Virus record (IMG/VR): IMGVR_UViG_3300024520_000388
Coordinates: 1-28,278 of that record
Origin: a virus
DNA: 28,278 bases
Direction: 5' to 3' (one strand)
In this document: positions 19,695 to 26,081 of the stretch, in pieces
How positions within the stretch are numbered: position 1 is the stretch's first letter
Layout: every line of letters begins with the position of its first letter
Notes under the pieces: generated by a model
What the model was told of the DNA's origin: nothing
The model's input: only the letters and a program-made list of their open reading frames with translations
Databases searched by the model: none
Position numbers and translations under genes: made by a program

Positions 19695-20405
19695 GTGAAA
19701 AAGTTGTTGGTGTGCGTGGGCTATGATTCTCGTGAGGACATAGCTTACCAAGTGTGTCGGCATTCAATATACAGGAGAAGCACACTTCCTGTTGAAATAT
19801 ATCCTCTTAAACATAAAGAGTTAAGGGACCGTGGAATTTTCTGGCGGCCTTGGTTGACTGCTGGTTCAGGGCAGACTGTCGATTGCATAGATGGTAGACC
19901 TTTCTCTACTGCATTTTCGCACACCCGTTTTTTGACACCTCATCTGGCCAAAGAGAAGGGATATCAATGGGCTTTGTTTGTTGATTGTGATTTTCTTTTT
20001 ACAGAGGATGTCGCTAACTTGTTTAATCTTATTGATGATAACTACTCTGTGATGTGCAGAAAGTTTCAGTATCATATAGCTAATGATGTAAAGATGGATG
20101 GGATGCAGCAATCAAGCTATGACAAAAAGCTGTGGTCTAGTCTTTGTCTGTGGAATACTGATAAGCATTTTCCTACAGTGGAACAAGTTAATTCTAGAGA
20201 TGGTGCTTGGTTACATCAATTTCAATGGTTGTCTGATCAGCAGATTGGAGAGGTTCCCGAAGGATGGAACTGGATATCAGGGACTGACGAGGTTCCTAAA
20301 GCAATACATTATACAGGAGGTGGTCCTTGGTTTCCCCAGCATGAGGGTTGTGAGTATGGACATCTTTGGAAGAGTGAATTAGAGCACATGGAGAATAGTA
20401 AATGA
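19695..20405 (+). CDS. Glycosyltransferase with DxD motif (GT-A type)
   Basis: 236 residues. The start is GTG, with AGGAG at 19684-19688 six bases upstream. The protein begins with a strand typical of nucleotide-sugar transferases (KLLVCVGYDSREDIAY). It carries ALFVDCDFLF at 94-101, whose Asp-Cys-Asp (97-99) is the metal-binding DxD of GT-A enzymes, and a downstream AIHYTGGGPWF, like the metal-binding His loop of GT8-like families. The donor sugar and acceptor cannot be read. It overlaps the next gene by four bases (ATGA), so the two products probably act together on one glycan. No signal peptide or membrane anchor is visible, so the action would be cytoplasmic. Confidence 0.8.
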   Translation: MKKLLVCVGYDSREDIAYQVCRHSIYRRSTLPVEIYPLKHKELRDRGIFWRPWLTAGSGQTVDCIDGRPFSTAFSHTRFLTPHLAKEKGYQWALFVDCDFLFTEDVANLFNLIDDNYSVMCRKFQYHIANDVKMDGMQQSSYDKKLWSSLCLWNTDKHFPTVEQVNSRDGAWLHQFQWLSDQQIGEVPEGWNWISGTDEVPKAIHYTGGGPWFPQHEGCEYGHLWKSELEHMENSK

Positions 20406-22591
20406 TTTTAGTTACCAGCTTTCACGCCAAGTCGTGGGACACTTATGCAAAAAGGTTTATGGAAAGCTTCCAAAAACTATGGCCTAAGAGCGTGAAGTTA
20501 CATGCGTTTTATCATGACGGCGATATTCCCAAGGACGCTCCTTCGGGCAGCAACATCTCTTACAGAAAACTTAACCACCCAGAGATGCTTGAATTTAAAG
20601 AGAGATTTAAAGATAAGAATGGTGGCTCACCTTACAATTATAGGCTTGATGCCATTAAGTTTTGTCATAAGGTGTTTGCCTTGACCGAGATGGCAGAGGA
20701 ACTCAGGACCAATAAGTCTAAACAACAATGGCTTATGTGGTTGGATGCCGACACAGTAACCAAGAAGAAGCTTCCTCTCAGGGAGATTAAGAATTGGGTC
20801 GAACCTAAGGCAGACGTAGTTTACTTGGGTCGCAAAGCCATAGATTATTGTGAGTCTAGCTTCCTTGCTTTTAATATGGATAACATTCCTGCCCACGTTT
20901 TATTGGAGGACTTTAGGGGCTTGTATCTTTCAGGCGAACTGTTTGGGTACAGGGAGTGGCATGACGGCTTTGCCTTTGAGCGTCTACTCAGGATGCACAG
21001 GGTACATGGTCTTAATACTCATGACTTGACACCCAACTGTGAAGACTTGCAGGCTTTCAATAGTAGTCCTTTGGCAAAATACTTGCACCATTTTAAGGGA
21101 CCAGACAAGGGGCAGACACACGCGCCAGTAAGATATAATCATTTGGTTGAGATGGTTGGTTTCTATAAGCCTAAAACAATTCTTGAGACAGGCACATGGA
21201 ATGGTGACAGGGCTGTGCAGCTTTGTCTTGCGGCTCTGCAGGCTTCGCCAGGGGATATACGCTATGTAGGTTATGATCTTTTCGAGGATGGTAACAAGGA
21301 ACTTGATCAGCTCGAATTTAATGCCAAGCCTAATACTGCTATGGATAAGGTTGCCAAGAAGCTTGATCGCCTTAAGGAGTTGCACCCAAGGTTTGATTAC
21401 TCTTTGCACAAGGGTGACACCAGGGAAATCATGAAGCATCACAAGGTAGACTTTGCTTATCTTGATGGTGGGCATTCTGTGGATACAGCAGCCAACGACT
21501 TTGAAAAGGTTGCGGGGTCCAAGGTAGTGGTGATGGATGATTACTTTGTTAAGGATGAGGCAGGGCAAATACCTCCTGATAAGTGGCAGGGTACCAACAA
21601 GGTTTATGATGCTCACGAAGGAAGAAAGTTTCTTATTAATTCTCCTGACCCTGTGAATGTGGGCGGTAAAATTTCGCTGGCTGTCTTTGTTGAAGAGGGT
21701 CAAGACCCACCCAACATGGATAGAACCGCAGTTCCTATCATCGTTAATCCTGTTGATTGCGTTGAGAAAGATTTTCTTCACGACAACATCAAAGAGAATG
21801 TAAAAATTATTCCTCTCTACATAGAACGTAAGTTCGACTGGCATGAGCGAAAGCTTGTTATTGTTTCGGGAGGGCCTAGTATTCGGGATGATTTTACCGC
21901 GATCAGAAAAGCACAGATTCAGGGAGCTGATATCATGTGCGTAAAACACTCGCTGCCTATGCTATTAGACGCTGGTATAACTCCTTGGGGATGCATTATA
22001 CTGGACCCGCGAACCTTAGATGGCGAAAGTACGCATGGAGTTGTCAGGCGAAACCTGTTTAAAAAGAAATCGGACACCTTATTTTTTGTTGCGAGTATGA
22101 CTAATCCTGAGGTAACTAAATTCCTTAGGGATAGAGGAGATACAATCTATGGTTGGCATGCTTTTTCTCAGGCCAGCAGTAAGTTGCCAGAATTGCAAGA
22201 CAAGATGCTGGTAACTGGAGGTACTTGCGCTGCCATGAGAGCGGTAGGTTTAGGTCACACTCTAGGATACAGGAGCTTTGATTTGTATGGTTTTGATTCT
22301 TGTGTTGAGGAGCCATCTGAAAAAGAAAAGAAGAAGATGGACCAGGAAACTGATAAGCCTAAGTACATTGAAGTTGGTATAGGCGGAAGAAAGTTTTGGA
22401 CTACAGGAGAATTGTTGGCACAAGCTCAAGATTTCGAGAGACTTGTCGGACGTAATGATGTAGATATGAGGTTGCAAGTTTTTGGTAAAGGCATGGTTCC
22501 TGCGTTGTGGGAGAACATGCAAGCACAAAGAGAAATTTCACCTAGTTTTGCTTCATATGTAGCTGAACACGAGAAAGGCAATGATGGCTGA
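20402..22591 (+). CDS. Three-domain fusion: GT-like, SAM methyltransferase, DUF115/Maf-like
   Basis: 729 residues. Residues 1-235 look like a second GT-A glycosyltransferase: strand ILVTSFHAKSWDTYA, WLMWLDADTV with DAD at 115-117, and a WHDGFAFERLL acceptor-side helix. Residues about 245-430 are a class I SAM methyltransferase: ILETGTWNGD (motif I, 260-269), GYDLFEDG, FAYLDGGHS (351-359) and VVMDDYF. Residues about 450-640 match the DUF115 (MptE/Maf-type) pattern: VIVSGGPS (487-493), ILDPR (533-537), GGTCAAMRAVGLG and DLYGFDS. Maf proteins of this family transfer nonulosonic sugars to flagellin. The fusion probably builds and caps a glycan on a host or virion target. The domain calls are good; the reaction is inference. 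Confidence 0.8.
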   Translation: MILVTSFHAKSWDTYAKRFMESFQKLWPKSVKLHAFYHDGDIPKDAPSGSNISYRKLNHPEMLEFKERFKDKNGGSPYNYRLDAIKFCHKVFALTEMAEELRTNKSKQQWLMWLDADTVTKKKLPLREIKNWVEPKADVVYLGRKAIDYCESSFLAFNMDNIPAHVLLEDFRGLYLSGELFGYREWHDGFAFERLLRMHRVHGLNTHDLTPNCEDLQAFNSSPLAKYLHHFKGPDKGQTHAPVRYNHLVEMVGFYKPKTILETGTWNGDRAVQLCLAALQASPGDIRYVGYDLFEDGNKELDQLEFNAKPNTAMDKVAKKLDRLKELHPRFDYSLHKGDTREIMKHHKVDFAYLDGGHSVDTAANDFEKVAGSKVVVMDDYFVKDEAGQIPPDKWQGTNKVYDAHEGRKFLINSPDPVNVGGKISLAVFVEEGQDPPNMDRTAVPIIVNPVDCVEKDFLHDNIKENVKIIPLYIERKFDWHERKLVIVSGGPSIRDDFTAIRKAQIQGADIMCVKHSLPMLLDAGITPWGCIILDPRTLDGESTHGVVRRNLFKKKSDTLFFVASMTNPEVTKFLRDRGDTIYGWHAFSQASSKLPELQDKMLVTGGTCAAMRAVGLGHTLGYRSFDLYGFDSCVEEPSEKEKKKMDQETDKPKYIEVGIGGRKFWTTGELLAQAQDFERLVGRNDVDMRLQVFGKGMVPALWENMQAQREISPSFASYVAEHEKGNDG

Positions 22592-22847
22592 CATTATATC
22601 GTTAAATAAAGCTGTATCTGATGACGTAAAGAAATCTTTGGATGAGATAAAAGAATTTAAAGAGAAGGGGCTAGCAGAAGTAACTAAGTTTATAGAGGAC
22701 AAGGATACTGTAGGATATATAATATTAACTTTTGATGCTGAAGGAAATACTATTATAACAGCAGCAGGACAACTTGATCCAGCCGATTGCTGTATAGCTC
22801 TCGAACGTATAAAATATCAAATTATAAATAATGAAGGAGGTATGTGA
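22584..22847 (+). CDS. Conserved-looking small phage protein, unknown
   Basis: 87 residues from the second of two adjacent ATGs (22581 and 22584), chosen because AAAGG lies about six bases upstream. The first half is a charged helix (SLDEIKEFKEKGLAEVTKFI). The second half is a compact alpha/beta segment (GYIILTFDAEGNTIITAAG, then DPADCCIALERIKYQII). The vicinal cysteines at about 70-71 are notable. It overlaps the fusion gene upstream, and its stop overlaps the next start. I recognise no function. Its position just before the holin candidate suggests a late gene, possibly tied to lysis timing or glycan modification. Confidence 0.7.
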   Translation: MADIISLNKAVSDDVKKSLDEIKEFKEKGLAEVTKFIEDKDTVGYIILTFDAEGNTIITAAGQLDPADCCIALERIKYQIINNEGGM

Positions 22848-23131
22848 TGTCTGATCCAATTACTACTACAGTCGAGTCAGTGAGTTGGTGGATGCAAATT
22901 TGGGGAGCAAGGGACGCTATCTTAGGTGGTGCTTTAGGTGTTGTTGCAGCAGCGGCAACCGTAGTGGGCGGCACTAAGACCCCTACTCCTGGTTCATGGC
23001 TAGCAAAAATTTATAAGGTGATCGAGTGGGCTTCTCTTACTTTCGGCAAAGCCAAAGACACAGGCGAGAAGGAAAAATATGTAGCCGAGACTGAAAAAGT
23101 TGAAGTTACGATTGACGTAGAGCCTAAATAA
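22847..23131 (+). CDS. Putative holin
   Basis: 94 residues from the ATG at 22847, with a near-perfect AAGGAGG at 22834-22840, the strongest ribosome site in the area. A GTG one codon earlier is also in frame. One clear membrane segment spans about residues 24-43 (AILGGALGVVAAAATVVGG). An amphipathic helix follows (WLAKIYKVIEWASLTFGKAK), then a highly charged C-terminal tail. This topology and the location directly before the spanin genes fit a small holin that opens the inner membrane at lysis. Holins share little sequence, so the assignment rests on topology and context. It could also be a membrane regulator of lysis. Confidence 0.6.
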   Translation: MSDPITTTVESVSWWMQIWGARDAILGGALGVVAAAATVVGGTKTPTPGSWLAKIYKVIEWASLTFGKAKDTGEKEKYVAETEKVEVTIDVEPK

Positions 23132-23472: not shown

Positions 23473-24306
23473 ATGATGCGTAAGTTACTAGCTGCTTTAT
23501 CTGTAATACTGTTGCTGTCTGGCACAGCCTATGCAGCGGGTTACAAAGACCCAATACCAGTTAAACAACATTTAGAGATGCTCTATCCAACTGTGTTGGT
23601 GGCTGTCGGTGGTGGCAGTGGTTCAGGCACCGTAATTTTTTCTGAAAGGTATCAGGATGAGTTTGCTTCTTTAGTTCTTACTAACTGGCATGTGGTTAGA
23701 GGTGCGATAGCGGTTACAGAGGAATGGGATTCAAAGAATAAGGTGAAGGTGGAGAAAGAAACTCGCCGCCCAGTCAAGATTGAAATCTTTGAGTACAATA
23801 ATTACAGTAAGAGTATAGGAACTACAGGTCGGACAGCAACCATTGTAGCTTATGATAAGAAGAGGGACTTAGCTCTGCTTAGGGTTGATGATAGGGAACG
23901 CGCCCTTGATCATGTGGCAACGCTCTATCCTGAGGGTGAGGATGATGGCCCGTGGATTTTTCAGAAGGCGTGGGCAGTTGGAGCAGGACTTGGTAAGCCA
24001 CCCTTCCCAACGCAGGGATTGCTTTCAGGATTTGCGAAAGACAATTATGGTAACGATCTTATATTGGGAAGTGCGCCCATAATTTTTGGTAATTCGGGCG
24101 GCTCTGGTTACGTCATGTCTCCACGAGGTACCTACGAATTGATAGGTGTTCCAAGCATGGTGTCGGCTTATGGGTGGGGTTCAGTCGTATCTCACATGGG
24201 CTGGTGGAGACCGATATCTGAGATCAGAATTTTTTTACGGGCGAATGACTATGGTTTTGTGCTGGGTGATCCTGAGGTAGAGGATGACCAAGAACAAGGT
24301 AACTAA
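23473..24306 (+). CDS. Secreted trypsin-like serine protease
   Basis: 277 residues, with GGAGAAG upstream. An N-terminal signal peptide (MMRKLLAALSVILLLSGTAYA) predicts export to the periplasm. A chymotrypsin-type catalytic triad is visible in order: LTNWHVV with His73, KRDLALLRVD with Asp132, and FGNSGGSGYV with Ser208. The spacing suits a trypsin-like or DegP-type protease domain. The C-terminal 25 residues are acidic, and there is no PDZ domain. It follows the spanin pair by 11 bases and overlaps the next gene. A periplasmic protease next to lysis genes could act on the envelope, on surface receptors or on host enzymes during lysis. The substrate is unknown. Confidence 0.85.
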   Translation: MMRKLLAALSVILLLSGTAYAAGYKDPIPVKQHLEMLYPTVLVAVGGGSGSGTVIFSERYQDEFASLVLTNWHVVRGAIAVTEEWDSKNKVKVEKETRRPVKIEIFEYNNYSKSIGTTGRTATIVAYDKKRDLALLRVDDRERALDHVATLYPEGEDDGPWIFQKAWAVGAGLGKPPFPTQGLLSGFAKDNYGNDLILGSAPIIFGNSGGSGYVMSPRGTYELIGVPSMVSAYGWGSVVSHMGWWRPISEIRIFLRANDYGFVLGDPEVEDDQEQGN

Positions 24307-24905: not shown

Positions 24906-25259
24906 TTAACTTTCAGATCGCTGGTCTCCCTTGAGAGTTCCCTGCTGTTGGCGGTGGCGTAGCTTGACAAGATTCTTTTCCATACAACTAGATAGGCGTG
25001 TGTCTAAGACAGTTGTTAGCTGGGCTACATACCACAAGACATCTCCAAGCTCGTCTATGATTTGATCTCTTACTTCTTCTGGTATTTCACTGGCAAGCTT
25101 GGGGTTTTTGTAGTCTCCTCTGATTACTTTCTTTAGTTTGTTGGCTACTTCACCAGCCTCACCCACCAAGCCCAGGGTCAGGTATTCTAGGGCGCGCTCA
25201 GGTGGATAGACAGCAGTGATGCCTGTTTGTTTTTGATAGTCGTTTGGATGCTCAATCAT
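24906..25259 (-). CDS. mazG: MazG-like nucleoside triphosphate pyrophosphohydrolase
   Basis: 117 residues. The metal-binding ExxE...ExxD pattern is complete: Glu34-x-x-Glu37 in LGLVGEAGEVANKLKK and Glu70-x-x-Asp73 in IIDELGDVLWYVAQL. The end (KNLVKLRHRQQQGTL) is usual for phage MazG proteins of this short single-domain type. These enzymes hydrolyse nucleoside triphosphates to monophosphates and pyrophosphate. Phage copies have been proposed to clean the nucleotide pool or tune host alarmone signalling. The gene overlaps the preceding nuclease gene by eight bases, so it belongs to the minus-strand nucleotide/DNA operon with ribonucleotide reductase. Assignment is strong; the preferred substrate is not readable. 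Confidence 0.9.
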   Translation of the reverse strand: MIEHPNDYQKQTGITAVYPPERALEYLTLGLVGEAGEVANKLKKVIRGDYKNPKLASEIPEEVRDQIIDELGDVLWYVAQLTTVLDTRLSSCMEKNLVKLRHRQQQGTLKGDQRSES

Positions 25260-25752
25260 TTTCTTGTTCCTTTGGTATCCTTATAATGAAAGAAAGTTTT
25301 TCCATATCGTGGAAGGGTATGAGCGTTAGTTCATCCTTCCTGTTTACTCTATTGTATATGTGGTAAGCTTTTCTTCCTTTGTTATAGTTTAAGTCTTTAA
25401 GTTTTTGTTCTGTAAATTTTATTAGTTTTTCACGGTGAACCAGTAACCACTCTTGAAATCTTTCAAACACAATATAATCTGCCTTGCCATAAAGCCAGCC
25501 TTTATTTCCTCTGACATTTTTAAGTTCAATCCAGGCGAAGTCATCTTGATATTCTGTTTGTTGACGTTGTAGCTTTTTCAATCCTTTGACATCAAACTTT
25601 AAGTCGCGTTCCACCTGAGGCAATATTCCCGCAACATCCCAGTGTTCATGTATGTCTTGTTGTGTGTTGCTGGAGCGAGGGTTCAACAGAAGTTTTGAAA
25701 ACTCTTCCTCTACTTTCTTTGCTTTGTCCAAGAAAGATTTAAAGTTAGTCAT
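25252..25752 (-). CDS. PD-(D/E)XK-type endonuclease (probable)
   Basis: 166 residues with no cysteine. A nuclease-like core is seen: an acidic N-terminal helix (KKVEEEFSKLL), HWDVAG (Asp39), FDVKGLKK (Asp54, Lys56), then FAWIELKNVRGNKGWLYGKADYIVFE with Glu76-Leu-Lys78 as the ExK element and an Ala-Asp-Tyr strand. The order fits the restriction-endonuclease fold; a Holliday-junction or other branched-DNA nuclease is possible. It starts in an ATGA overlap with the Fe-S carrier gene and runs into MazG, so it is made with the replication-associated genes. Its likely job is host-DNA degradation or recombination-intermediate processing. I cannot name the subfamily. Confidence 0.65.
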   Translation of the reverse strand: MTNFKSFLDKAKKVEEEFSKLLLNPRSSNTQQDIHEHWDVAGILPQVERDLKFDVKGLKKLQRQQTEYQDDFAWIELKNVRGNKGWLYGKADYIVFERFQEWLLVHREKLIKFTEQKLKDLNYNKGRKAYHIYNRVNRKDELTLIPFHDMEKLSFIIRIPKEQEND

Positions 25753-26081
25753 GCTGTCTCCTTAAGTGAAAAACTTTCTCCGCACCCACAAGCAGAAGCT
25801 ACATTGGGGTTATTCAAAGATAATATAGTACCAAATAAGTCCTGTTTGTATTCGAGTATGGTACCTACAACATACATGACTGCCAGAGGATCAATATAGA
25901 GAGTGCCTTTAGACAGCGGTATTGCCTCACCCGAAGGCTCATGGACCACCTGCCAGTCGTAGGAGAAGCCAGCACACCCACCACCCTTGACAGACAGCAA
26001 GACACCCTCAGCTTTTTCGCGCTCCAGAATAGAGCAAAGGTGTGCGTCTGCTTCAGGTGTAATAGTTATCATACTCCGCAT
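25749..26081 (-). CDS. A-type Fe-S cluster carrier (IscA/HesB/ErpA family)
   Basis: 110 residues. The three family cysteines are present: Cys36 in GGGCAGFSYDW, and Cys98 and Cys100 in the C-terminal CGCGESF. The segment TLYIDPLAVMYVVGTILEY matches the family's conserved core, and the length is the usual one. These proteins bind an Fe-S cluster and hand it to target apoproteins. The first ATG (26081) has GGAGG three bases upstream; a second ATG at 26072, also in frame, is possible. The start overlaps the 3' end of the ribonucleotide reductase gene by 13 bases. No Fe-S client is evident in the visible part of the operon. The family call is firm. Confidence 0.9.
   Translation of the reverse strand: MRSMITITPEADAHLCSILEREKAEGVLLSVKGGGCAGFSYDWQVVHEPSGEAIPLSKGTLYIDPLAVMYVVGTILEYKQDLFGTILSLNNPNVASACGCGESFSLKETA

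What the first reader, a model, noticed from the sequence alone, without database searches (positions are those of the whole stretch)
19695..22591. Glycosyltransferase next to a GT-methyltransferase-DUF115 triple fusion in a late phage block
Two coupled genes encode a DxD glycosyltransferase and a 729-residue protein with three recognisable modules: GT-A-like (DAD 115-117), class I SAM methyltransferase (ETGTWNGD 262-269; YLDGGHS 353-359) and DUF115/MptE-Maf-like (SGGPS 489-493; LDPR 534-537; GGT 606-608). DUF115 occurs in Maf proteins that attach nonulosonic sugars to flagellin. I know no described phage pathway with this exact set. It could glycosylate and methyl-cap virion proteins, or remodel a host surface glycan to block reinfection. 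The block follows the virion operon and precedes lysis, and may have its own promoter.
Basis: partly seen in the sequence, partly recalled or inferred. Interest (0 to 1): 0.75.

Follow-up and report, generated by a model that had tools for sequence, protein, structure and literature searches.

The report
Phage sugar-building and methyl-capping enzyme operon
An uncultured, probably marine phage carries two coupled genes that look like a small assembly line for building a sugar chain and capping it with a methyl group; the same pair occurs in well over 500 uncultured virus contigs but was not found intact in any of 50,697 searched phage records.

Summary
ORF 19695-20405 (236 aa, "G") is a GT8-like glycosyltransferase. 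ORF 20402-22591 (729 aa) is a real three-domain protein: N, a GT-A glycosyltransferase (best single-domain fold matches are GT6 enzymes); M, a Methyltransf_24 methyltransferase with a MycE-like sugar-O-methyltransferase active-site pattern; D, PF01973/DUF115, whose closest solved fold is the Maf flagellin glycosyltransferase, then archaeal MptE, then sialyltransferases. Many relatives place it beside RNR genes, so "late block" is local. In two of three lineages whose fused M lost its active-site residues, a separate methyltransferase gene is present (7/7 and 5/5 contigs; 0/19 contigs with intact M), which suggests methylation is a required step. Best reading: a viral glycan-assembly and methyl-capping system that works like chlorovirus A064R but uses a Maf-like domain. 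Acceptor (virion protein or host surface glycan) and sugars are unknown. New variant of a known kind.

The parts
19695..20405 (+). Gene G: 236-aa GT8-like glycosyltransferase (DCD 97-99; HYTGGGPW 205-212)
   Evidence: PHROG 28018 E 4e-61; family profile matches GT8 structures WbbM and 5gvv at E 0.001-0.002; Mosig homologue passes the GT8 cut-off
20402..22591 (+). Gene N-M-D: 729-aa triple fusion
   Evidence: model mean pLDDT 83.7
20402..21106 (+). N domain, residues 1-235: GT-A glycosyltransferase; D115xD117 and H230xKG
   Evidence: Full-length model matches GT6 alpha-1,3-galactosyltransferase, blood-group GTA/GTB and LARGE1; Mosig and ct7QV12 homologues; D115 in 121/123, H230 in 119/123
21122..21721 (+). 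M domain, residues 241-440: class I SAM methyltransferase; E262xGTWNG, D292, D355GGH358, D379D380
   Evidence: PF13578 above cut-off; active-site pattern as in MycE/ThnM1 (PMC9275233)
21722..22588 (+). D domain, residues 441-729: PF01973 MptE-like/DUF115, Maf-like fold
   Evidence: PF01973 65 bits; model pLDDT 88.8, pTM 0.86; fold matches 5mu5 Maf E 2e-9, 8sd5 HPPK 4e-5, GT29 sialyltransferases about 2e-3
20402..20405 (+). 4-bp ATGA start/stop overlap coupling G and N-M-D
   Evidence: in 145 of 150 loci the two genes lie within 30 bp, all on the same strand
21679..23119 (.). Diverged block (D domain, 88-aa ORF, 95-aa holin-like ORF) between two segments about 98% identical to L002; left breakpoint near the M/D boundary

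Best explanation
The two genes form a phage-encoded glycan-assembly unit. Shown by computation: G is a GT8-like transferase, N a GT-A transferase, M a SAM methyltransferase with a sugar-O-methyltransferase active-site pattern, and D a Maf/MptE-like domain. Inferred: G and N each add a sugar from a nucleotide-sugar donor, with a metal held by their DxD motifs (about 0.75); D attaches an acidic sugar from a host-made activated donor (about 0.55); and M, or a separate methyltransferase in lineages where M decayed, O-methylates the glycan as a cap (about 0.7). Most likely acceptor: a virion protein (about 0.45), then a host surface glycan or glycoprotein (about 0.35). The product would disguise the particle or change host receptors. 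The order of steps and the sugars are not known.
For: Profile and fold identity of the modules. Near-universal operon G then N-M-D: 134 intact loci and 7 more cut by a contig end, 145/150 within 30 bp. Motif conservation: D115 121/123, E262 and G264 123/123, DPR 122/123, GGT 122/123, WTTGE 122/123. Purifying selection. M has D355-x-x-H358 and D379-D380, the pattern that binds metal and sugar in MycE/ThnM1 (PMC9275233). Replacement pattern: the fused M lost these residues in three lineages; degG carries MT2 immediately downstream (30/31 proteins, the exception being a contig that ends there; 7/7 long contigs) and degE carries a stand-alone M gene (5/5 contigs), against 0/19 intact-M contigs with either. 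Unfused counterparts in Pelagibacter phage Mosig: two FkbM-type methyltransferases, N, G and a sulfotransferase nearly in a row. Precedent: chlorovirus A064R, two GTs and a methyltransferase in one chain, builds a capsid glycan (PMC9614988). Mycobacteriophages glycosylate capsid and tail proteins (PMC12363180).
Against: No biochemistry exists and the acceptor is unknown. No NeuB or CMP-sugar synthetase gene in ten relatives, so a nonulosonate donor would have to come from the host. D also resembles the MptE kinase. In most of the long relatives examined the pair sits with RNR and DNA-metabolism genes, which weakens a late virion-decoration argument. The degN lineage (4 proteins) lost M residues and no replacement was found in the contigs searched. 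The replacement evidence rests on only two independent events.
Confidence: 0.62

Rival explanations
1. Host surface remodelling: the enzymes add or cap sugars on host LPS or another envelope glycan during infection, blocking adsorption of further phages or of released progeny.
For: In most of the long relatives examined the pair lies in the RNR/DNA-metabolism block, so it may be expressed before the virion genes. Glycosyltransferases of pelagiphages are discussed in the literature as lipopolysaccharide-modification genes (PMC9599517).
Against: No flippase or membrane-anchored transferase of the known seroconversion kind was seen beside the pair (by eye).
Confidence: 0.3
2. D is not a sugar transferase but a pterin or nucleotide diphosphokinase-like enzyme, with N and G modifying a small molecule or cofactor.
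For: PF01973 is named for MptE; the second fold match is M. jannaschii HPPK (E 4e-5).
Against: The best match, by four orders of magnitude in E-value, is the Maf glycosyltransferase, and sialyltransferases follow; D is fused to a GT and a methyltransferase-fold domain in 122 further distinct proteins.
Confidence: 0.1
3. Phage DNA modification: the transferases glycosylate hydroxymethylated bases to evade restriction.
For: Location near RNR in many relatives.
Against: No gene of the thymidylate-synthase/dCMP-hydroxymethylase family (PF00303) in ten relatives, eight of them 53-62 kb; the M domain belongs to Methyltransf_24, not to a DNA-methyltransferase family in Pfam.
Confidence: 0.06

Closest known systems
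PBCV-1 chlorovirus A064R (and A111/114R)
   Same: One viral polypeptide with glycosyltransferase and methyltransferase domains that builds and methyl-caps a capsid glycan; a second methyltransferase (A061L) is a separate gene (PMC9614988)
   Different: Order is GT-GT-methyltransferase with no PF01973 domain; virus of algae; homology was not established here (an unnamed 638-aa viral entry, M1IF74, is a weak fold match)
Maf flagellin glycosyltransferases (5mu5; CbMaf)
   Same: Closest solved fold for D; Maf also has a Rossmann-like domain with weak methyltransferase similarity before the PF01973 domain (PMC11339370)
   Different: No helical C-terminal domain, no flagellar context, an intact methyltransferase active site in most members, and an extra GT-A domain
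Pelagibacter phage Mosig EXVC030M glycan cluster (genes 00183-00191)
   Same: N and G homologues adjacent, beside methyltransferases and a sulfotransferase
   Different: Separate genes, no PF01973 domain in the whole record, different phage family (Kyanoviridae)
A0A6J7X5Q0, uncultured Caudovirales phage, 714 aa
   Same: Match over the whole length (32% identity, E 2e-60)
   Different: Only a database entry named 'Methyltransferase domain containing protein'; no description found

Membership tests
PF01973 MptE-like (DUF115) | Score over the curated cut-off | tested here: met
   65 bits against 34.6 in the window protein; also met in all 8 IMG/VR relatives and all 12 contigs
Maf glycosyltransferase | PF01973 domain of Maf-like fold | tested here: met
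   5mu5 is the top match, E 2e-9, TMq 0.60
Maf glycosyltransferase | Helical C-terminal domain after the PF01973 domain | tested here: not met
   The D model ends soon after the transferase fold with two short helices; the Maf C-terminal helical bundle is described in PMC11339370
Maf glycosyltransferase | Transfers nonulosonic acid to flagellin | not testable with these tools
   Needs biochemistry; no nonulosonate synthesis genes in ten relatives
MptE 6-hydroxymethylpterin diphosphokinase | Stand-alone enzyme (archaeal pterin pathway) | tested here: not met
   D is fused to N and M in all complete relatives except L100, where it is fused to N alone
Methyltransf_24 (PF13578) | Score over the curated cut-off | tested here: met
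   30.5 bits against 26.3
MycE-type metal-dependent sugar O-methyltransferase | Asp-x-x-His plus second Asp of the metal site | tested here: met
   D355, H358, D379-D380; reference residues Asp275, His278, Asp304 from PMC9275233. Pattern only
MycE-type metal-dependent sugar O-methyltransferase | Recognisable sequence kinship to MycE | tested here: not met
   The PDB search with the M profile returned no MycE entry
GT8 | PF01501 score over cut-off for gene G | tested here: inconclusive
   15.7 bits against 24.3 in the window; Mosig homologue 30.9 bits; PDB profile hits to GT8 at E 0.001-0.002
A064R-type viral glycan enzyme | GT, GT and methyltransferase in one chain acting on a capsid glycan | tested here: inconclusive
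   GT and methyltransferase in one chain is met; the third domain is PF01973 here; activity and acceptor not testable

The most novel reading that the evidence does not exclude
A widespread lineage of uncultured phages carries a Maf-type protein glycosylation system that attaches and methyl-caps an acidic-sugar glycan on its own virion proteins, with domain exchange between phages at the M/D boundary producing glycan types.
Probability: 0.25. Interest if true: 0.82.

Novelty: new variant of a known kind. Interest (0 to 1): 0.62.

Why it matters
If right, it is an abundant phage glycan-building system, absent in intact form from the phage records searched, and the first phage counterpart I know of to the chlorovirus A064R enzyme. 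It would give a testable handle on whether and why phages decorate their particles or hosts with methylated sugars, and the decay of M with replacement elsewhere in the genome is a natural experiment on which step is essential.

Tried and rejected
A domain-swap signal in M between L133 and L128 (29% identity) was an artefact: a stand-alone M had been compared with a fused M; the fused M domains are 92% identical. A Fisher test on M decay against MT2 (p 3e-20) is not used as a measure of strength: the tree shows degG to be one clade, so only independent events are counted. Single-domain searches of D and M in phage records found nothing, and two diverged full-length queries found only the N homologues. 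PADLOC found no defence family and NCBIfam nothing above cut-off. PDB sequence searches with N and D profiles found nothing. Literature searches for DUF115 or MptE-like proteins in phages found no relevant paper. The one genome scan found only two MAG contigs, both with phage genes alongside.

Full report
The observation. Two overlapping genes lie at 19695-20405 (G, 236 aa) and 20402-22591 (N-M-D, 729 aa), joined by a 4-bp ATGA overlap. Pfam places PF01973 at residues 461-636 (65 bits, cut-off 34.6) and Methyltransf_24 at 261-370 (30.5, cut-off 26.3); the GT2 and GT8 matches to N and G are weak. The window is a 28,278-base virus record.

Modules by fold. The full-length AlphaFold model (mean pLDDT 83.7, pTM 0.55, 40-sequence alignment) matches Maf (5mu5, E 2e-8) and, over a length of one domain, GT6 alpha-1,3-galactosyltransferase, blood-group GTA/GTB and, more loosely, LARGE1: the N domain is read as a GT-A enzyme. 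The table does not print which residues are aligned, so the assignment of the GT-A matches to N rests on the DxD domain being the only candidate. The D domain alone (pLDDT 88.8, pTM 0.86) matches Maf at E 2e-9, M. jannaschii HPPK at 4e-5 and GT29 sialyltransferases at about 2e-3. G's family profile matches GT8 structures at E 0.001-0.002, and its homologue in Pelagibacter phage Mosig passes the GT8 cut-off. M has E262xGTWNG, D292, D355GGH358 and D379D380; the spacing of D355 and H358 equals that of Asp275/His278 of MycE and ThnM1, which methylate sugars with a bound metal (PMC9275233). This last point is a motif match, not a sequence hit: the PDB search with the M profile did not return MycE.

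How widespread. Of 166 loci with at least one module (some overlap on one contig), 134 show G directly followed by N-M-D, 7 more show it cut by a contig end, and the rest are mostly truncated contigs. Natural variants are N-M without D (L049, L056), N-D without M (L100), N and G as separate genes (Mosig) and N alone (ct7QV12). In 145 of 150 loci G and N-M-D lie within 30 bp on one strand. Across 123 distinct proteins D115 is kept in 121, E262 in all, DPR in 122 and W666TTGE in 122; dN/dS is 0.04-0.16 in G, N, M and D where dS was not saturated. In the phage collection (50,697 records) the only matches are unfused pieces: Mosig and ct7QV12 for N, and 18 records for G, mostly Caulobacter giant phages. 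The two MAG contigs found carry phage genes of the same lineage.

Context. The nearest relatives (G009, L004, L005) keep the window's order: large virion protein, G, N-M-D, holin- and spanin-like genes, protease. In more distant relatives (G010, G011, G013, G016), which share virion proteins with the window at roughly 37-45% identity, the pair lies after RNR and before a gene that looks by eye like a small terminase, on the strand opposite to the virion block; in G010 a gene that looks by eye like an Hsp20 lies between RNR and G. L100 keeps the post-virion position. The 62-bp gap before G gave no promoter call, and promoter-like sites in the region are no more frequent than in shuffled sequence.

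Decay and replacement of M. In 40 of 122 relatives the fused M lost H358 and usually D355, while motif I is mostly kept. A tree of the N and D domains groups these as degG (31, one clade), degE (5, one clade) and degN (4; one or two changes). In degG a second methyltransferase of another family (MT2, closest Pfam Methyltransf_23, just under its cut-off) overlaps or abuts the end of N-M-D in 30 of 31; the exception's contig ends there. In whole contigs MT2 is present in 7/7 degG and 0/19 intact-M contigs. In degE a stand-alone copy of M is present in 5/5 contigs (one apparently frameshifted), and in 0/19 intact-M contigs. The degN contigs searched show neither. So two of three losses are matched by a replacement gene: methylation is probably an essential step, but this rests on two events, and the contigs are not complete genomes.

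Recombination. Against L002 the window is about 98% identical from G to the end of M, about 73% from 21679 to 23119 (D domain, an 88-aa ORF and a holin-like ORF), and about 98% again to about 23.9 kb; the upstream virion gene is about 50%. The left breakpoint lies at residue 426, near the M/D boundary. L003 shows the same left breakpoint, but its protein is nearly the same as that of L002, so this is one event; it suggests domain exchange and does not prove a general mechanism.

Function. The set (two glycosyltransferases, a sugar-type methyltransferase, a Maf-like domain) points to assembly and methyl-capping of a glycan. Chlorovirus A064R is the best working analogue: two GTs and a methyltransferase in one chain, building a capsid glycan, with a second methyltransferase as a separate gene (PMC9614988). 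Phage virion glycosylation itself has precedent in mycobacteriophages (PMC12363180). Acceptor and sugars are open. No NeuB or CMP-sugar synthetase gene was found in ten relatives, so an acidic-sugar donor would have to come from the host. No thymidylate-synthase-family gene was found there either, which counts against DNA glycosylation by the T4 route. No defence family matched.

Verdict. It works like known viral multi-domain glycan enzymes and is a new variant of that kind; it is not filed as a Maf protein, because the Maf C-terminal domain is missing. The mechanism is inferred and the acceptor unknown.

Noticed in passing
window 23473-24306: Trypsin-like protease (PF13365 46.6 bits) with a signal-peptide-like start, in the lysis block; well conserved in near relatives (89% in G009).
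   Followed up: no
window 25752-26081 (-): Fe-S cluster carrier (PF01521) with relatives in many of the 60-kb phages.
   Followed up: no
window 24909-25259 (-): MazG-type pyrophosphohydrolase (PF03819) close to the RNR gene.
   Followed up: no
L005 6265-6636 (-): ORF that looks by eye like an HNH endonuclease, near the end of the RNR gene; possibly a mobile element.
   Followed up: no
L137 4011-4652: An extra ORF, by eye ThyX-like, sits between G and N-M-D.
   Followed up: no
L049 and L140 (one 59,571-base contig): Carries both the G/N-M-D operon and a second N-M gene without D.
   Followed up: partly
L100 9137-10051: 304-aa ORF with no Pfam match directly after the N-D fusion that lacks M.
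   Followed up: partly
L128 (contig G021) 10027-10667: The stand-alone M appears split into two frames (197 and 47 aa): a frameshift or a sequencing error.
   Followed up: no
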